DNA of 64,000 nucleotides from Peteryoungia rhizophila (GTDB lineage Bacteria; Pseudomonadota; Alphaproteobacteria; Rhizobiales; Rhizobiaceae). The stretch covers positions 930,001 to 994,000 of the forward strand of contig NZ_STGT01000002.1 of assembly GCF_004912145.1 (NCBI RefSeq), written 5' to 3'. Numbering within the stretch: position 1 is the first letter of the stretch; every line of letters starts with the position of its first letter. This document shows positions 6,916-21,920 of this stretch, in pieces. The notes under the pieces were generated by a model, which was not told the origin of the DNA, did not search any database, and saw only the letters and a list, made by a program, of their open reading frames with translations. The position numbers were made by a program, and so were the translations under genes.

Positions 6916-7330
6916 TCTCCAAGTGGCGACGGCCTCGATCGGCCGGATGGCTCATCTTTCGTGCCTCGATCGCCCGTCGCCCGGGCCATGCATCAAAGGG
7001 CCTCACAAGACCCTGGCTGCATGGCCCACTCCATTTTTGACGGGTCGTCACGACGCCTTGATCCCGCCCGAATCGATCCCCATATGGCGATCAACCCGCT
7101 GGTCCGGGCCCCTCTGGCAAAAGCCTCCGGCGCTTTTGCGATGTCGGACCGTTTCGACACCGCTGCCGGTCCAAGGACCAATTCATGCCACGCTACCATT
7201 CTATTCTGATCAGCCCGGGTCGCTTCCCGAGCCTCGATGGTGCTTCTTTGCGCCCCGGCCATCCGAAGCCGCGTATCCTTTCGCCGCGGGGCGGCGAAGC
7301 AGGGTCGTTGGCGCTCAAGGAGGTGCGCCG
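6916..7330. other. Gene-poor gap (415 bases)
   Basis: Open frames run through this stretch on both strands, but none has a convincing ribosome site, family motif or clean boundary with its neighbours. The AAGGAGGTG just before 7331 is the only clear signal. I see no RNA gene or large repeat here. Confidence 0.4.
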
Positions 7331-13181: not shown

Positions 13182-14878
<1,697 letters not shown>

Positions 14879-14882
<4 letters not shown>

Positions 14883-15823
14883 GACAGAACGATCCTCGGG
14901 AAGTAGAAGGAGACGACCCAGTTGGGCATGTCGACGATTTCGCTGATCCTGAGGTCTCCGCAGACCGAGCAGAGCATGTAGGCGTCGACCGGGTTCATGC
15001 CGTGTTCGGCCGTGAGCAGATCGATCATCCGCATGACGGCTTCCTGCGCACCGGTCATCAGGTCGGGACCGATGCCGGTCGTAACCTCGTAGCCGGCGCC
15101 GTCGAGATGGCGGGTTACCGGTTCGGTCGTCGTGAATCGCGGCGACTTCAGGTTGGCGCCCTTGACCAGATCAAGGGTCAGCTCGACGTTCATCTGGCTT
15201 TCGATTGCGGTACCGCAGACTTCGCCATCACCCTGGGCGGCATGCGTGTCGCCGACCGAGAAAAGTGCGCCCTCGACTTCGATCGGAAGATAGAGCGTCA
15301 CGCCCGAGGTCAGGTCGCGGATGTCCATGTTGCCGCCGACGCGGCGGGGAGGGACGACAGAATGAAGGCCTGCCTCTGCGGGTGCCACGCCGATCGTGCC
15401 GGTGAAGGGTTTGAGCGGCACTTTACCACCGGGGCCATAGGCGGCCGGGGCCATCGAGGCGGTGTCATAGGACCAGACATGCAGCGCCGGATCCTTGAAC
15501 TGGTCAGCGAGAAGACCGAAGCCCGGGATGTTCGCGGTCCAGCCATGGCCTGACGGGTGGAATTTCCGGATCGTGACCTTCAGGGCATCACCGGGTTCGG
15601 CGCCTTCCACATATACGGGTCCCGATACCGGATTGATCTTGCCGAAATCGAGGTTGGCAAGCGTGTCGAGTGTCGCGTCGGCTCCGAGCTGTCCGCCGGA
15701 GGAATCCAGGCATTCGAACAAGATCGTTTCGCCCGGCTTGGCGACGAGGGCAGGGGAGAAGTCCTTGTTCCAGCCGAAATTATGCTGGGCCCGATGGATG
15801 GTGTGGTTGCAGGCGACGCACAT
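14879..15823 (-). CDS. fmdA: Acetamidase/formamidase (FmdA family)
   Basis: This 314-residue enzyme hydrolyses short-chain amides such as formamide or acetamide to the acid and ammonia. Family motifs are GWNKDFSPALVAKPGETILFE in the N-terminal part, GGNMDIRDL, and the strongly conserved GALFSVGDTHAAQGDGEVCG region. There is no signal peptide, so it acts in the cytosol on imported amide. It lies between the substrate-binding protein gene and the ATPase gene. GAGG precedes the ATG. The amide-sensor genes at the head of the operon agree with this activity. Confidence 0.93.
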
Positions 15824-15900
15824 GATGATGCCTCAAGTTTTCTCGTATGTTTCCGCAGGCGCTCCCCCCTCGTGAGGAGGGAGGAGCAAGGGCAGTTGCG

Positions 15901-17520
15901 TTACTGCTTCACGAAGATCGCGTCGTAATTGATGACGCGGGTCGGATCGATGTAGATGTTGTCGGGACCGCCCATGCGCATCGACTTGGCGACGACACGA
16001 CGTTCGTTGATCACGGGCACCCACGGCGCATCCGCCATGATGTCGGTGAAGATCTTGCCCCAGGCCGCCTGGCGCTCGGCAACCTTGGCCGGATCGGACA
16101 TCGAGTCGGCCTCGATCGCCCGCTTGTCGAGCGCTTCGTTGCAATACCAGGACCAGTTCCAGCCACCCTGAACCGCGCCGCCGCAGCCGAGGATCGGGCC
16201 GTAGAAGTTGGACGGATCCGGGAAGTCGGCGATCCAGGCCATGCCGCCAGACCAGATCATCGGGGCTTCGCCTTCGGTGCCGCCGGCCGCAATCACATTG
16301 CCCTGCGCCAGTGCACGGACTTCGGCCTTGACGCCGATGGCGGCCAGATCCTGCTGGATCGCCTGGGCGATGCGCGGCTGCGGATCGGTGTTGGTGGAGT
16401 AAAGCACCGTTTCGAAGCCATCGGGCAAGCCGGCTTCGGCGAGCAGGGCCTTGGCCTTTTCAACGTCGAAGGCATAGCCGGGATATGCCTTGTCGTAACC
16501 CGGCATCAGCGGCGGCAGGGGCTGGTTTGCCGGTGTCGCTCGACCGTTCAGAATGCGGGTGATGCGCTCCTTGTTGACGGCCATGTTGATCGCCTGGCGG
16601 ACCTTGACGTCATCCAGCGGCTTGATCTTGGTGTTGAGCGTCAGATAGCCGGTATGCAGCTGTTCGCCATCGACGATCATCTGCGCGCCTTCAGGCGAGT
16701 TCTTGATCTCCAGGAACTTGGCCGGCGGAATGCCGTCGCCGGCGATGTCGACTTCGCCCTGCTGCAGACGCAGGAGCGCCACGAGCGGCTCCTGGCCGAC
16801 TTCGACGGTGACCTTGTCGATGTAGGGCAGATCCTTGTTGAAGTAGTCGGGATTGCGGTCGAAGACGAGCCGTTGGCCGATCGTCCAGTCCTTCAGGATG
16901 AAGGTGCCGGATCCGACCGGCTTCTTGCCGAAGTCACCGGCTGCTGCTTCCACGGCTTCCTTCGGCACGACCGAGGCGAAGTTGATCGCCAGCACGTGCA
17001 GGAAGGTGGCGTCGGGGCGCGACAGCTTGAAGACGACGGTCATGTCGTCAGGTGTCTCGATGCCCGACAGGGTTTCCGACGTGCCGCCCGACACGGCATC
17101 GAAGCCGTTGATCGCGCCGAAGAAGCCGGCGCCGGGGCCTTGCGTCTTCGGATTGACGGCGCGTTCGATCGAATACTTGACGTCGGAGGCGACGACTGCG
17201 CGACCGTTGGAGAATTTGACGCCGGGCCGCAGCTTGAAGGTGTAGGTCAGGCCATCGGCCGAGACGTCGAAGCTTTCGGCGAGCGAGGGTACGAGATTGG
17301 CGGTGCCGGGCTCGTAGTCCATCAGGCGGGAATAGAGGCTCTTGATCATCGACCAGTTGACCCAGTCGTAGCCGATGGCCGGATCGAGAGTGGTGATGTC
17401 GTCCTTGTAGGTGACGACGATATCGCCGCCCTTGGTGGGCGTGTCCTGGGCGCTGGCCGCAAGCGGCATCAGCGCCATCAGGGCGGCGGCGGTTGAGTTG
17501 AGAAGCATACTTCTGAACAT
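15901..17520 (-). CDS. Peptide/nickel-family ABC substrate-binding protein of the amide operon
   Basis: This 539-residue periplasmic protein is of the SBP_bac_5 (DppA/OppA) class. It has a signal peptide ending near LMPLAASAQD. Class motifs are ITTLDPAIGYDWVNW, LVPSLAESFDVSADGLTYTFKLRPGVKFSNGR and DVKVRQAINMAVNKERI. AGGGGAAC precedes the ATG. The class normally binds peptides, but operon context (AmiC, AmiR, FmdA) suggests an amide-bearing ligand. The ligand is inferred, not read from sequence. Confidence 0.9.
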   Translation of the reverse strand: MFRSMLLNSTAAALMALMPLAASAQDTPTKGGDIVVTYKDDITTLDPAIGYDWVNWSMIKSLYSRLMDYEPGTANLVPSLAESFDVSADGLTYTFKLRPGVKFSNGRAVVASDVKYSIERAVNPKTQGPGAGFFGAINGFDAVSGGTSETLSGIETPDDMTVVFKLSRPDATFLHVLAINFASVVPKEAVEAAAGDFGKKPVGSGTFILKDWTIGQRLVFDRNPDYFNKDLPYIDKVTVEVGQEPLVALLRLQQGEVDIAGDGIPPAKFLEIKNSPEGAQMIVDGEQLHTGYLTLNTKIKPLDDVKVRQAINMAVNKERITRILNGRATPANQPLPPLMPGYDKAYPGYAFDVEKAKALLAEAGLPDGFETVLYSTNTDPQPRIAQAIQQDLAAIGVKAEVRALAQGNVIAAGGTEGEAPMIWSGGMAWIADFPDPSNFYGPILGCGGAVQGGWNWSWYCNEALDKRAIEADSMSDPAKVAERQAAWGKIFTDIMADAPWVPVINERRVVAKSMRMGGPDNIYIDPTRVINYDAIFVKQ

Positions 17521-17547
17521 TGAACGTTCCCCTTTTGTCGTTAGGCT

Positions 17548-18468
17548 TCAGTGTGAACGGATACGCGGGTCGATGACCGGCGCAATCAGGTCGGCAATCA
17601 GATTGCCGGTGATGATGGCAAGTGCAGAGGTGAGCGTGACGCCCATGATGATGGGTATGTCGACCTGCTGGATGGCCTGCCAGGCGAGCTGGCCGATGCC
17701 GGGCCAGCCATAGACGGCCTCGACCACGACCACGCCGCCCATGAACTGGCCGATATCGATGCCGATCATGGCGATGATCGGCAGGATGGCATTGGGCAGG
17801 ACATGGCGCAGGATGACGCGGGCTCCGGACAGTCCCTTGGCGCGCGCGGTGCGGATATAGTCCTGGTTCAGCACGTCGATCATGGCCGAGCGGACCATGC
17901 GGGCGTACCAGCCGGCTCCGAGCATGCCGAGAGTCGCAGCCGGCAGCACGACATGGGCTGCCGTGCCATAACCAGACATCGGGAACCAGCCGAGCGTTGC
18001 GGCGAAGACGTAGAGCAGGAGCAGAGCGACCACGAATTGCGGGGCGGAGACCCCGACAAAGGCGGACATCATGACCGTGCGATCGAGAAGGCCGCCGCGA
18101 TTGAGGGCTGCGATCGAGCCGAGCACCACGCCGAGCAGCACTTCGAGAAAGATACCGGCGGCCATCAGGGTCAGCGTCGCCGGCAAGCGGGCGGCGATCA
18201 GCGTGATGACCTCGGTCTTTTGTGCGTAGGAGCGGCCGAGGTCGCCCTGGACCAGCCCGCCGACATATTGCGCGAACTGCACCGGCAGGGGCTGGTCGAG
18301 GCCGAGCTCCTTCCGGATATTTTCGACGGTCTGAGGGGTAGCGCTTCGTCCGGCGAGCATGCGTGCCGGATCCGCCGGCAGGGCGTAGAGCAGGACGAAG
18401 GTGATCGCCGCCACGCCGAACAGGATAAAGATGGACTGAACCAGTCGTTTTCCGAGCAGTTCCAGCAT
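17548..18468 (-). CDS. DppB-type ABC permease of the amide operon
   Basis: This 306-residue inner-membrane permease begins LELLGKRLVQSIFILFGVAAITFVLLYALP, typical of the DppB/OppB subunit. The coupling-helix EAA motif is visible in DYIRTARAKGLSGARVILRHVLPNAILP. About six membrane helices are expected. The start at 18468 overlaps the stop of the partner permease by one base (TGATG). A longer frame reaching 19416 is only an out-of-frame shadow of the partner gene. Confidence 0.92.
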   Translation of the reverse strand: MLELLGKRLVQSIFILFGVAAITFVLLYALPADPARMLAGRSATPQTVENIRKELGLDQPLPVQFAQYVGGLVQGDLGRSYAQKTEVITLIAARLPATLTLMAAGIFLEVLLGVVLGSIAALNRGGLLDRTVMMSAFVGVSAPQFVVALLLLYVFAATLGWFPMSGYGTAAHVVLPAATLGMLGAGWYARMVRSAMIDVLNQDYIRTARAKGLSGARVILRHVLPNAILPIIAMIGIDIGQFMGGVVVVEAVYGWPGIGQLAWQAIQQVDIPIIMGVTLTSALAIITGNLIADLIAPVIDPRIRSH

Positions 18469-19316
18469 CAGCCTCGCCCCCGCTGAGTCGGGTCGAGGAT
18501 GTCGCGCAGGGCGTCCCCCACCAGGTTGAAGGCAAGCGCGGTCAGCAAGATCACGGCACCCGGGAAGAAGACCAGCCAGGGGGCTGCCTGGAAATAGCTC
18601 TGGCTCTCGAAGATGATGTTGCCCCAGGACGGGTTCGGCGGTTGGACGCCGATGCCGAGGAAGGAGAGCGTAGCTTCGAGGAGCACTGTGGTGGCGATCC
18701 CGAGCGTGCCCCAGACGATGGCGGTAGGGACGAGGTGGGGCAGAATGTGCAGGAAGAGGATGCGGGCGTGACCGGCGCCGAGCGAGCGCTCTGCGAGAAT
18801 GAAGTCGCGCTCCACCAGTCCGCGCGTCTCGGTATAGACGATGCGGGCAACCTGCACCCAGTTGACCAGTGCAATCACCATGGCGACGATCCAGAGGCTG
18901 GGTTTCAGAAGCGCCGCAAGCACGATGGCGAGCAGCAGCGCCGGGAAAGCCATCATCAAGTCGGTGAACCGCATCATCAGGTTGCCGGCCCAGCCGCGCA
19001 TGTAGCCGGCAGTGATCCCGACAAACAGTCCGATGGTGACCGCCACGCCATTGGCAACCAGGCCGATGATGAGGGAGGTGCGTGCGCCGAAAAGCATGCG
19101 GGAGAGGAGATCGCGCCCGAGCGTGTCCGTGCCGAGCGGGAAGGGGCCGCCGGGCGGCATGGGCGCGCCCTCCAGAGTGAGGCCATCGAACATCTGCTCG
19201 TCGGGATCGAAGGGCGCAAACAGCGGTGCGCCAAGGGCGGCGATCAGAACGAGGCCGATCACGATGAGGCCGAAGAGTGCCGCAGGCTGGCGCCCGATTT
19301 CCTTGAAGATCCGCAT
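18468..19316 (-). CDS. DppC-type ABC permease of the amide operon
   Basis: This 282-residue partner permease of the DppC class starts RIFKEIGRQPAALFGLIVIG. It has the usual long periplasmic loop with FPLGTDTLGRDLLSRMLFGARTSL and a late EAA region (ERSLGAGHARILFLHILPHLVPT). ATG 19316 overlaps the stop of the upstream regulator gene, so the 84 extra bases of the open frame are not needed. Translational coupling runs through the whole operon. Confidence 0.9.
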   Translation of the reverse strand: MRIFKEIGRQPAALFGLIVIGLVLIAALGAPLFAPFDPDEQMFDGLTLEGAPMPPGGPFPLGTDTLGRDLLSRMLFGARTSLIIGLVANGVAVTIGLFVGITAGYMRGWAGNLMMRFTDLMMAFPALLLAIVLAALLKPSLWIVAMVIALVNWVQVARIVYTETRGLVERDFILAERSLGAGHARILFLHILPHLVPTAIVWGTLGIATTVLLEATLSFLGIGVQPPNPSWGNIIFESQSYFQAAPWLVFFPGAVILLTALAFNLVGDALRDILDPTQRGRG

Positions 19317-19900
19317 CAGCCGGCCTCGCACAGTGTTTCGAGCCCACCGACGAGGAGCGCTGCCAGTTGTTCGATGGGAATGCGCCGCCGCATGGCGCAT
19401 GTCCGGAGCAAGACATAGGCCTGTTCGTCGTCGATCTGTCGCTCGATCTTCAGGCGATTGACTGCCGCAAAGACAATGGGGCGCAGTTTCAGCCGCTCTT
19501 CGAGCTTTGCGATGCGCGCCTCGTCTTCAAGACGCTGCTCATGGGCCGTGACGGCGAGAACGAGGGCCGGGTAGATGGTCGAGACCGACACGGGTTTCGG
19601 AATGAAGGACGCCGCACCGCAATCGATCGCCCATGCAATGCGCCCTGGCGCTTCCGAGCCCAGAAGGGCTGCGACGGGGCGAGCAGGTTTGCGCCGTGCC
19701 CATGGCAGGAGTTCATCCCAGCCGCGGTCCGCGTCGACGATGACGAGGTCCGGCAGATCATCGCCCGACAGGGGCAGCCACTGAAGGGAGGCGGATACGC
19801 CAAGCAGTGTCAGATGACGGCGCAGCTTCTCGGTGTTGGAATCGTCCTCTGCGAGGATCACAACGCGCCAGCCGGTGAAATTGGGTGTCCTGGCGGTCAT
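19316..19900 (-). CDS. amiR: AmiR/NasT-type ANTAR antiterminator
   Basis: This 194-residue RNA-binding regulator has a receiver-like N-terminal domain (about 11-118; WRVVILAEDDSNTEKLRRHL), a coiled coil (about 120-142) and a C-terminal ANTAR helix bundle (about 129-187; DDEQAYVLLRTCAMRRRIPIEQLA). ANTAR proteins bind hairpins in leader RNA to prevent termination. In Pseudomonas, AmiR is held inactive by AmiC until an amide binds. Here its gene follows an AmiC-like gene with a four-base overlap, and the operon leader has a strong terminator. Confidence 0.9.
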   Translation of the reverse strand: MTARTPNFTGWRVVILAEDDSNTEKLRRHLTLLGVSASLQWLPLSGDDLPDLVIVDADRGWDELLPWARRKPARPVAALLGSEAPGRIAWAIDCGAASFIPKPVSVSTIYPALVLAVTAHEQRLEDEARIAKLEERLKLRPIVFAAVNRLKIERQIDDEQAYVLLRTCAMRRRIPIEQLAALLVGGLETLCEAG

Positions 19901-21033
19901 GATACGACCTTCAGACGTGGTTCTCGCCGTGCACTGCCGCCCGTCAGGTAAGGGTCGGCCGCCAAAGGCGGTCGGGCGGCGATCACGTCGAAACCGCGCT
20001 CGGAGTTGATGCGGCCGAGCAGGAAGGGCAGGGCGGCGTGGTTGGTCACGGGATCGACGGCCATGTCACCGAAGAGGCCGGGCCAGGTTCGGCCGTGCAC
20101 CTGCCGGCGCACGGTGGCGGGGTCGCTGTCGGCCGATGCCTCGATGGCTGCGATACACATGGTGACGGCCGTGTAAGCGCTGGCGAAGATGCAGGAGACG
20201 CGTCGCGTCTCGGGCTTGAAGGCGCGCAGCCGCGCCTTGAACGCGTGGTTTTCTGTGCTGTCGAGCGTGTCGAAATACGAGGCGGCGCAAAGCTGGCCGA
20301 TCGCCGCACCTGCGGCGATTTCATCGAGTTCGCTTTCTTGCAGGTCACAGCTGGCAACGGGGCAATTCTCCGGCAGAAATGCCGGATCGCGTTTGCCGAG
20401 TTCGTGCATGGCTTCGAGGAAAGCGTAGCTCGACGGGCCGATGAGATTGTTGAGGATGAAGCTCGGGCGCTTTTCCGCGATGTCGGCGATGATGCGTTCC
20501 ACCGCAGTTTCCTCGAGCGGCAGGTAGCGTTCGCCCAGCACCGTGCCCCCGGCATTGGCGACGAGTTCACGCGCCAGCCGGTTCATCTCCCAGCCCCAGA
20601 CATAGTTTGCGCCGACGAGATAGGGTCGTGCACCGAAGCGCGGGACGAGATGTTCGAAGAGGGGGATCAGGTGCTGGTTCGGACAGCCGCCAATATAAAT
20701 GACGTTCTCGTTGGCCTCGAAGCCCTCATAGGGGCACATGTACCACAAGAGACCGTCGTGCTTTTCGACAAGTGGCAGCACTTCCTTGCGGGCGGCAGAG
20801 GTGATCGTGCCGATGATATGGCGGCAGCCACTGTCACGGATCAGACTGCGCGCACCTTCCAGATAGGCGGCGAGATCGGCATGGGGATCGAAAAAGACCG
20901 GCTGGACGCGTGTGCCGCCTGCGTTCCTGTATTCGTGGAAGGCGAATTCCACGCCGTCGAAGGCATCGCGGCCCATGGCGCCATAAGGCCCGGTCGTCGA
21001 GTAGAGGATGCCGATTTTGACTGGGTCCAGCAT
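19897..21033 (-). CDS. amiC: AmiC-like amide sensor
   Basis: This 378-residue protein has the periplasmic-binding fold of the AmiC/UrtA group (VKIGILYSTTGPYGAMGRDAFDGVEFAFHEYRNAGG). It lacks a signal peptide, as expected for AmiC, which works in the cytosol as a ligand-controlled partner of AmiR rather than in transport. YMCPYEGFEANENVIYIGG and VGANYVWGWEMNRLARE are typical of this group. It is the first gene of the operon, so sensor and antiterminator are made from the transcript they control. Confidence 0.9.
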   Translation of the reverse strand: MLDPVKIGILYSTTGPYGAMGRDAFDGVEFAFHEYRNAGGTRVQPVFFDPHADLAAYLEGARSLIRDSGCRHIIGTITSAARKEVLPLVEKHDGLLWYMCPYEGFEANENVIYIGGCPNQHLIPLFEHLVPRFGARPYLVGANYVWGWEMNRLARELVANAGGTVLGERYLPLEETAVERIIADIAEKRPSFILNNLIGPSSYAFLEAMHELGKRDPAFLPENCPVASCDLQESELDEIAAGAAIGQLCAASYFDTLDSTENHAFKARLRAFKPETRRVSCIFASAYTAVTMCIAAIEASADSDPATVRRQVHGRTWPGLFGDMAVDPVTNHAALPFLLGRINSERGFDVIAARPPLAADPYLTGGSARREPRLKVVS

Positions 21034-21048
21034 GTGAATTCCAAACGC

Positions 21049-21091
21049 AAAAAACCCACAACGCGGGTCCCGGCGATCGGGGCGTTGTGGG
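21049..21091 (-). terminator. Intrinsic terminator in the leader of the amide operon
   Basis: Read on the minus strand, a perfect 10-bp stem CCCACAACGC/GCGTTGTGGG (21082-21091 and 21055-21064) is followed at once by TTTTTT (21049-21054). It ends about 15 bases before the amiC start codon, so it would abort the transcript before the first gene. It is the strongest terminator in the window and the expected target of an ANTAR antiterminator. Confidence 0.85.
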
Positions 21092-21152
21092 GCAATGTTG
21101 CCCGTTGACGGATGTCGTCGATGTGAAAGATATGACCGTTCTGCTCAGAACG
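21090..21152 (-). promoter_or_regulatory. Candidate ANTAR-binding hairpins in the amide leader
   Basis: On the minus strand, hairpin 1 (21137-21152) is CGTTC-TGAGCA-GAACG and hairpin 2 (21090-21103) is GGGC-AACATT-GCCC. Each has a six-base loop. Hairpin 2 shares its last bases with the 5' arm of the terminator, so the two cannot form together. Known ANTAR sites are paired hexaloop hairpins with conserved A1 and G4. Here loop 1 has only G4 and loop 2 only A1, so the match is partial. Confidence 0.55.
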
Positions 21153-21160
21153 TGTGCATG

Positions 21161-21190
21161 ATTAAAATATGCTCAATCGCGGTTTGTCAA
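21161..21190 (-). promoter_or_regulatory. Sigma-70 promoter of the amide operon
   Basis: On the minus strand, TTGACA (21185-21190) and TTTAAT (21161-21166) are separated by 18 bases, a near-consensus housekeeping promoter. Transcription would begin near 21154, just before hairpin 1, giving a leader of about 120 bases. A strong constitutive promoter followed by a regulated terminator fits antitermination control. Confidence 0.65.
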
Positions 21191-21275: not shown

Positions 21276-21920
21276 TCATCCAATGAGTTGCGCTTCGAGA
21301 AATGCGCGCAAGTCTTGGATATCCTGTGCAATTCGGATTTCGCCACGGCTTTCCGCCGCGTGGAATATGCCATCGAGATGAAGGCCGACGAAGCGCGCCA
21401 GCATGTCGCTATCCAACGGCCGATAGCGCCCCTGCGTCATGCCTGCTGCCAGCGTCGACAAGATCAGATCGCGTTCGAAACGATAGAAGCCCTGCACGAG
21501 AGCGTCGAGTTCCGGATCCTTGACCGGTTGGGCCGCCTGATCCGACATCAGTTTGACCATGCGTGACATCATCGTCGGCGCCATGGCGGTGTGGGTCGCA
21601 AACCAGGCGCCGATGTCGCCGAGGATATCATCTTCGTGAGCCGCGCGGCGGCTCTCGAAGTCGTCCGTGATCAGGCCGAGCGCACGCGACAGCACGGCGC
21701 GGATCAGGTGATCCTTGCTGCTGAAGTAATGATAGAGCAGGGCGACATTGACATCGCAGGCCAGCGCGATGTCGCGCATGGTGACGACGCTGAAATGGGA
21801 TGTGCCGACCAGACCGAGCGTCGCATCGAGAATGAGTTCCACCCGCCGACTGGGGTCCAGTCTTTGTCGCGCCACCTTTGCCAATTCGTCTCCCTTTCTT
21901 GTTCTGCCCAGCCGTATCAA
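21276..21920 (-). CDS. TetR/AcrR-family regulator
   Basis: This 214-residue regulator has an N-terminal TetR helix-turn-helix (RRVELILDATLGLVGTSHFSVVTMRDIALACDVNVALLYHYFSSKDHL, about residues 25-72). A helical ligand-binding domain follows (FYRFERDLILSTLAAGMTQGRYRPLD). It is transcribed away from the transporter/monooxygenase operon starting at 22126 across a 205-base gap, so it is the likely local repressor. A near-palindrome at 21971-21984 is a candidate site. Its ligand is unknown. Confidence 0.9.
   Translation of the reverse strand: MIRLGRTRKGDELAKVARQRLDPSRRVELILDATLGLVGTSHFSVVTMRDIALACDVNVALLYHYFSSKDHLIRAVLSRALGLITDDFESRRAAHEDDILGDIGAWFATHTAMAPTMMSRMVKLMSDQAAQPVKDPELDALVQGFYRFERDLILSTLAAGMTQGRYRPLDSDMLARFVGLHLDGIFHAAESRGEIRIAQDIQDLRAFLEAQLIG

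What the first reader, a model, noticed from the sequence alone, without database searches (positions are those of the whole stretch)
21034..21190. Complete antitermination leader for an AmiC-AmiR operon
Minus-strand order is TTGACA/TTTAAT promoter, a hexaloop hairpin right after the expected start site, a second hexaloop hairpin sharing bases with the next stem, then a 10-bp stem with six Ts about 15 bases before amiC. This is the layout expected for an ANTAR protein target, and amiR is the second gene of the same transcript. The loops carry only half of the conserved A1/G4 pattern each, so this may be a variant recognition class.
Basis: partly seen in the sequence, partly recalled or inferred. 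Interest (0 to 1): 0.75.

Follow-up and report, generated by a model that had tools for sequence, protein, structure and literature searches.

The report
AmiR antitermination leader, altered recognition loop
The stretch before the amide-sensor gene amiC looks like a genuine RNA switch that stops or permits transcription under control of the neighbouring AmiR protein, and it belongs to a large group of rhizobial relatives whose RNA lacks a base that was thought essential for this kind of protein to bind.

Summary
On the minus strand a TTGACA/TTTAAT promoter is followed by a 5' hairpin, a hexaloop hairpin (P2, GGGC[AACATT]GCCC) and a 10-bp terminator sharing two bases with P2; 0 of 1000 shuffles reached the P2+terminator score. 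P2+terminator precedes amiC in 105 of 106 relatives (94 distinct); the terminator covaries, P2 is almost sequence-invariant. A leader model hits 31 of 346 family genomes, 27 of the 28 with close AmiR; two extra hits also precede amiC-amiR, two do not. AmiR-controlled antitermination is the best reading, untested at the bench. The variant-class guess holds for P2: A1 and the C-G closing pair stay, but G4 is absent in 94 of 94 distinct leaders. A single clade without G4 fits the AmiR tree (AU p 0.52). Published work finds G4 needed by EutV and selected by NasR. The 5' hairpin is heterogeneous, and in the window P2 can coexist with an 8-bp remnant of the terminator. New variant of a known kind.

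The parts
21185..21190 (-). -35 box TTGACA
   Evidence: a loose TTGAC plus TTTTAAT-like pattern fits 93 of 94 distinct relatives
21161..21166 (-). -10 box TTTAAT, 18-nt spacer; transcript start near 21153-21155 is inferred
   Evidence: the tool's scan requires A at position 2 and lists no promoter
21137..21152 (-).
   Evidence: hairpin score of 11 or more in 90 of 94 distinct 5' segments, shuffles mean 47.1, max 59
21120..21125 (-). CACATC, the ACAT-type box before HP-B
   Evidence: alignments A1 and A2
21107..21119 (-).
   Evidence: 39 of 49 leaders outside the G4 groups, shuffles mean 7.7, max 16; its three counted pairs kept in 37 of 37 rows of A2
21090..21103 (-). P2 hexaloop hairpin GGGC[AACATT]GCCC; putative AmiR site and antiterminator
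21055..21091 (-). intrinsic terminator, 10-bp stem CCCACAACGC/GCGTTGTGGG; its first two bases are shared with P2
   Evidence: covariation; terminator scan
21049..21054 (-). T run (six T)
19897..21033 (-). amiC, amide-sensor gene
   Evidence: Peripla_BP_5 1.5e-99; PDB AmiC 1pea 2.6e-44
19316..19900 (-). amiR, ANTAR antiterminator gene
   Evidence: ANTAR 33.8 bits over cut-off 27.3; AmiR_N 23.8 under cut-off 27; PDB AmiR 8.3e-07
13182..19400 (-). downstream genes of the putative operon: two ABC permeases, family-5 binding protein, FmdA/AmdA amidase, double ABC ATPase
   Evidence: amiR and both permeases accompany amiC in 79 of 80 named loci; the genes beyond the permeases were not compared

Best explanation
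The leader is a transcription attenuator of the AmiC-AmiR operon. By default the nascent RNA folds the full terminator and stops before amiC. When AmiC binds an amide it frees AmiR (recalled from the Pseudomonas system), and AmiR binds the hairpins and holds P2. That takes the base pairs next to the T run away from the terminator, so polymerase reads on into amiC, amiR, an ABC transporter and an amidase: an autoregulatory loop. In this clade P2 would be recognised without G4, by A1, the C-G closing pair and the stem, probably together with HP-B and the 5' hairpin. Shown by sequence: P2 overlapping the terminator, conservation, covariation of the terminator, linkage to amiC-amiR, a single site in the genome by the searches made. 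Inferred: AmiR binding, ligand control, antitermination, operon extent, the manner of recognition.
For: P2+terminator in 62 of 77 amiC leaders of the order and phylum samples, two more set by eye, and in 105 of 106 closer ones, 94 distinct. Terminator: 94.5% of cells paired, 8 of 15 pairs changed on both sides, 47 such cells, covariation score 0.289; 0 of 500 shuffles reach each of these. HP-B in 39 of 49 leaders, shuffle max 16. Own genome: one pattern hit, this locus, reversed control 0. 397 order genomes: 8 hits of a stricter pattern, 7 in amiC leaders. Leader model R1: 31 of 346 family genomes, with 27 of the 28 that have close AmiR; two further hits (G801, G765) proved to precede amiC-amiR. 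AmiR has the residues matching EutV Arg142, Tyr164, Arg168, Met172, Arg175. Full terminator favoured over P2 by a median 3.8 kcal/mol in 37 leaders.
Against: No expression, binding or termination data. P2 lacks G4, which EutV needs and NasR selects. In the window P2 (closed to a tetraloop) plus an 8-bp terminator remnant is 0.6 kcal/mol better than the full terminator, so the exclusion is partial there and the balance unlike most relatives: P2 is in the optimum of 8 of 37, the terminator's bottom pair in 28. P2/HP-B covariation is slight: 2 of 7 pairs, reached by 15 of 500 shuffles, and a slide of +3 scores higher, 0.106 against 0.073. Further pair types of the terminator: 9 of 500 shuffles reach the count. 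The 5' hairpin is heterogeneous. Of the 31 genomes with model hits, G813 shows no amiC behind it and G1018 only a fragment match; G885, with AmiR, is missed. Part of the 27 matching genomes supplied rows of the model. EutV's Lys143, Lys147, Lys149 are not kept. 11 intact leaders of distant AmiC (32-42% identity) show no such element.
Confidence: 0.84

Rival explanations
1. The terminator simply ends transcription coming from the tetR gene upstream, and the hexaloop overlap is incidental.
For: A TetR-family gene lies upstream on the same strand (21276-21920).
Against: A conserved promoter-like pair lies between tetR and the hairpins; tetR was found in none of the 80 named loci (up to 2.5 kb upstream, less in a few) while the leader stays; P2 and HP-B before the terminator are conserved too.
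Confidence: 0.04
2. The leader is a small-molecule riboswitch or an attenuator for another factor, and AmiR acts elsewhere.
For: No direct evidence of AmiR binding; G4 is absent; HP-B and the ACAT box add structure beyond a minimal ANTAR site.
Against: The element goes with amiC-amiR; P2 keeps A1, the C-G closing pair and the terminator overlap of ANTAR targets; distant members of the same AmiR family have a P2 with G4 at the same place.
Confidence: 0.08
3. A variant of the best reading: AmiR recognises HP-B or the 5' hairpin rather than P2, and P2 is only a folding device.
For: HP-B is conserved next to P2 and is commoner outside the G4 groups (39 of 49) than in them (5 of 14).
Against: HP-B loops differ in size (3-9 nt, the limits of my search) and sequence, whereas P2's GGC-A...GCC is nearly invariant: closing C-G 62 of 62, A1 56 of 62, A1 94 of 94 in the closer set. 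The terminator overlap accounts for the 3' side only.
Confidence: 0.2

Closest known systems
Pseudomonas aeruginosa ami system (AmiC/AmiR, amiE leader)
   Same: AmiC-type sensor and ANTAR-type AmiR; a leader with hairpins and an intrinsic terminator (passages of PMC3369931). That AmiC releases AmiR on binding amides is recalled.
   Different: There the known leader precedes amiE and both loops have A1/G4; here it precedes amiC, the genes behind it include an ABC transporter and an FmdA-type amidase, and P2 lacks G4.
Enterococcus faecalis eut leaders / EutV
   Same: Hexaloop P2 overlapping the terminator; residues matching EutV Tyr164, Arg142, Arg168, Met172, Arg175 are present in the window's AmiR (numbering placed by me on the alignment).
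   Different: EutV is a phosphorylated response regulator; its loops need A1 and G4, and G4 is its only base-specific contact; Lys143, Lys147, Lys149 are not kept here.
Klebsiella oxytoca nasF leader / NasR
   Same: Two-hairpin motif with terminal C:G pair and A at loop position 1 (SELEX, passages of PMC7496416).
   Different: NasR selects G at position 4; NasR senses nitrate itself.
Second ANTAR gene of the same genome (L001; NasT-like by eye, name recalled)
   Same: An ANTAR protein next to a binding-protein-like gene.
   Different: By eye it keeps the residues at EutV Lys143 and Lys149; its target RNA was not searched for.

Membership tests
ANTAR-target dual-hexaloop antiterminator RNA | ANTAR protein encoded in the genome, linked to the element | tested here: met
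   amiR follows amiC on the same strand; two ANTAR matches in the genome
ANTAR-target dual-hexaloop antiterminator RNA | P2 stem of at least 3 bp with hexaloop overlapping an intrinsic terminator | tested here: met
   overlap of two bases in the window, and an 8-bp terminator remnant can coexist with P2
ANTAR-target dual-hexaloop antiterminator RNA | P1: an upstream hexaloop hairpin | tested here: inconclusive
   GTTC[TGAGCA]GAAC in the window, also a tetraloop fold; loops of relatives run from 3 to 15 nt, the limits of the search
ANTAR-target dual-hexaloop antiterminator RNA | A at position 1 of both loops | tested here: not met
   P2 has A1 (94 of 94 distinct relatives); the window's 5' hairpin has T1
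ANTAR-target dual-hexaloop antiterminator RNA | G at position 4 of both loops | tested here: not met
   P2 position 4 is A; in 94 distinct relatives T 59, A 35, G 0; the 5' hairpin read as a hexaloop has G4
ANTAR-target dual-hexaloop antiterminator RNA | terminal C:G closing pair | tested here: met
   P2 62 of 62
ANTAR-target dual-hexaloop antiterminator RNA | linker of 2-25 nt between the hairpins (PMC8164766, passages) | tested here: inconclusive
   34 nt from the 5' hairpin (counted with its outer pair) to P2, holding HP-B; 3 nt from HP-B to P2, but HP-B has a 5-nt loop
ANTAR-target dual-hexaloop antiterminator RNA | ANTAR-dependent antitermination | not testable with these tools
   needs transcription and binding assays
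AmiC-AmiR regulatory pair | AmiC-type binding protein | tested here: met
   Peripla_BP_5 1.5e-99, PDB AmiC 2.6e-44
AmiC-AmiR regulatory pair | AmiR pseudo-receiver plus ANTAR | tested here: inconclusive
   ANTAR over cut-off; AmiR_N 23.8 bits, under its cut-off of 27; PDB AmiR aligned over residues 15-186

The most novel reading that the evidence does not exclude
A large clade of alphaproteobacterial AmiR proteins uses a second RNA code: a hexaloop with A1 and a C-G closing pair but no G4 (A or T there in the Rhizobiaceae set, often G at position 5 elsewhere), read in a compact three-hairpin leader in which HP-B takes over the role of the canonical first hairpin. If the change happened once, as the AmiR tree allows, the two codes can be compared within one protein family.
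Probability: 0.43. Interest if true: 0.65.

Novelty: new variant of a known kind. Interest (0 to 1): 0.5.

Why it matters
G4 is described as obligatory for EutV-mediated antitermination and as EutV's only base-specific contact. A natural clade without it, with the rest of the switch kept, would show which contacts the ANTAR fold really needs. It may also mean that search models seeded with A1/G4 loops overlook such leaders (not tested here against the published models). Rhizobium and Shinella relatives offer an apparently single-site, autoregulated system in which to test it.

Tried and rejected
Rfam at low stringency in the leader: nothing. RNAalifold on A1 found only P2's three inner pairs, as MAFFT scatters HP-B; HP-B was therefore tested as a hairpin against shuffles. 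A link between loss of G4 and loss of the aromatic residue that stacks on it in EutV was weighed: 14 of 14 G4 rows have Y or F, and so have 41 of 48 others; the contrast is weak and shares ancestry, and P. aeruginosa AmiR seems to have His there (my reading of the alignment), so I do not claim it. The tetR-terminator and riboswitch readings were ranked low. Structure prediction was not run: it would not decide RNA recognition.

One search shows partial coexistence in the window, and the free tree needs three changes counting L009, while one clade without G4 is not rejected.

Rows handled by hand: P2 was set by eye in L048, L052, L054 and L058 (L052 and L054 had been missed, the other two automatic picks replaced). 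Left out: L063 (same as L034), L002 (same as L003), L042 and L044 (cut by contig ends), L085 (its AmiR did not pass my tblastn cut-off, so it is not in the tree). The 49 leaders include L009, which has G4 but lies outside the G4 groups. L104 had no P2+terminator by my detector, though model R1 hits its genome G1006. L124, L133, L110, L146, L109, L145 were left out of the alignment list; A2 holds 37 rows picked for diversity from the remaining list plus L003 and L004.

Full report
What is there. The terminator's first two bases are P2's last two. amiC matches the Pseudomonas AmiC structure (2.6e-44) and amiR carries an ANTAR domain over cut-off. Downstream on the same strand lie two ABC permeases, a family-5 binding protein, an FmdA/AmdA amidase and a double ABC ATPase. 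That these form one transcript is inferred.

Chance and folding. The combined P2+terminator score of the window leader was reached by 0 of 1000 dinucleotide shuffles, though 105 of 1000 held some weaker combination. RNAfold alone is less striking: z = -2.0, 5 of 200 shuffles as good. The two folds exclude each other only in part: in the window, P2 with its loop closed by A1-U6 plus an 8-bp remnant of the terminator, set off by two bases from the T run, is at -26.1 kcal/mol, the full terminator at -25.5. Over the 37 leaders of A2 the full terminator is favoured by a median of 3.8 kcal/mol (range -0.6 to 11.0); its bottom pair is in the optimum of 28, P2's pair in 8. Losing the pairs next to the T run should still weaken termination; that is inference.

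Relatives. AmiR was sought in 397 genomes of the order (87 with a match at E 1e-12) and 398 of the phylum (33 at 1e-8, partly the same genomes). Of 77 extracted amiC leaders (one a duplicate), 62 have a hexaloop hairpin overlapping a terminator, and two more by eye; two were cut by contig ends and 11 others, with AmiC of 32-42% identity, show none. Named relatives place the window in the Rhizobiaceae: nearest AmiC in Rhizobiales bacterium R1607_A (98%) and Rhizobium sp. TH135 (96%), then Ciceribacter, Shinella and other Rhizobium. Of 106 loci from the family sample and the named set, 105 have the element, 94 of them distinct. 79 of 80 named loci hold amiR and the two permeases (the other yielded none of these); none shows the window's tetR.

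Covariation. On 37 diverse leaders (A2) the terminator has 94.5% of cells paired, 8 of 15 pairs changed on both sides, 47 such cells and a covariation score of 0.289; 0 of 500 shuffles reach each, 9 of 500 reach the count of further pair types, and slid versions have at most 45.9% paired. HP-B and P2 have 100% of counted cells paired but hardly vary; 2 of 7 pairs changed on both sides, reached by 15 of 500 shuffles, and the slide of +3 has a higher covariation score (0.106 against 0.073). So the terminator has strong covariation, P2 mainly sequence conservation. Across the wider set, 39 of 49 leaders outside the G4 groups have a hairpin scoring 10 or more within 4 nt of P2, shuffles mean 7.7, maximum 16; the stems differ in sequence (GGCC/GGCC, GCTCT/AGAGC, GCGGC/GCCGC, CCGGC/GCCGG); in the G4 groups it is 5 of 14. 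The 5' segment has a hairpin scoring 11 or more in 90 of 94 distinct leaders (shuffles mean 47.1, maximum 59), but of many shapes; a [G/A]GC-A patch recurs in it.

Specificity. A loose P2+terminator pattern matches the own genome once, here; its reversed control matches nowhere. A stricter pattern, which the window itself does not meet, hits 8 of 397 order genomes: seven lie before amiC, the eighth just behind an unrelated gene's end. The covariance model R1 built from A2 hits 31 of 346 family genomes, one place each except G1018 with one weak place on both strands; 27 of the 28 genomes with AmiR at E 1e-35 are among them, G885 is missed. Ten rows of A2 come straight from such genomes and others are named copies of them, so those matches are not independent. 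Of the four other genomes, G801 and G765, which were not on that AmiR list, carry amiC-amiR directly behind the match; G813 does not, and G1018 is a fragment match whose surroundings I did not fetch.

The loop. In 94 distinct leaders of the closer set P2 position 1 is A in all, position 4 is T in 59 and A in 35. In the wider 62 rows the closing pair is C-G in 62, position 1 is A in 56, position 4 is G in 14. On the AmiR tree the G4 rows need three changes (shuffled mean 12.9): two groups of 9 and 4 rows keep G4, and L009 alone has it among the rest. Several forks are open, long branches meet, and the root is a midpoint. Holding all non-G4 rows and L009 as one clade is not rejected (AU p 0.52; group named after seeing the tree), so a single loss is possible, not shown. 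Of the 48 non-G4 rows 27 have G at position 5.

Comparison with print. Ramesh et al. 2012 (PMC3369931; passages and part 1 of section 10) report that changing A1 or G4 of either eutP loop lowers induction and binding, and that the amiE and nasF leaders share A1/G4. The EutV-RNA structure (PMC8934654; passages and section 21) gives G4 as the only base-specific contact, held by Tyr164, Arg142, Lys149 and Glu160, with Met172 in the loop. NasR SELEX selects the C:G closing pair, A1 and G4 (PMC7496416, passages). On the alignment the window's AmiR has the residues of Arg142, Tyr164, Arg168, Met172, Arg175, Asp for Glu160, Val for Lys149, Ala for Lys147, Pro for Lys143; the Lys149 column is V, I or T in all 62 rows, G4 group included, so its loss alone does not explain the loss of G4. 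Bradyrhizobium NasT has predicted leader hairpins too (PMC6759348, passages). I saw no paper on rhizobial amiC leaders or a class without G4 in the listings of five searches of the open-access library; subscription papers and the supplementary tables of PMC3369931 were not seen.

Conclusion. An AmiR-dependent antiterminator controlling its own operon is the best reading (0.84). It works like the known ANTAR leaders, but by the published definition of the RNA motif it fails the G4 test in P2 and the A1 test in the 5' hairpin, so it is filed as a variant rather than a standard member.

Noticed in passing
21276-21920 (-): A TetR-family gene directly upstream of the leader on the same strand; not found in any of the 80 named loci searched, so it looks specific to this lineage.
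   Followed up: partly
7096-7156 (+): Rfam terC RNA (RF03067), 65.1 bits.
   Followed up: no
L001 (G000:C20:43659-43817): The genome's only other ANTAR match, NasT-like by eye next to a binding-protein-like gene; its target RNA would be an internal A1/G4 control.
   Followed up: no
L057, L059, L061: By eye, distant AmiR relatives carry a farther-upstream A1/G4 hexaloop (GGGC[AAAGAT]GCCC type) as well as an A1/G4 P2, the canonical layout.
   Followed up: partly
L078-L081: P2 loops GAGGGC or GAAGGC: G4 kept but A1 lost, the mirror image of the window's class.
   Followed up: no
window 21090-21103 and L125: The P2 loop AACATT can close by an A-U pair to a tetraloop, which tips the computed balance to P2 in the window and L125, unlike most relatives.
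   Followed up: partly
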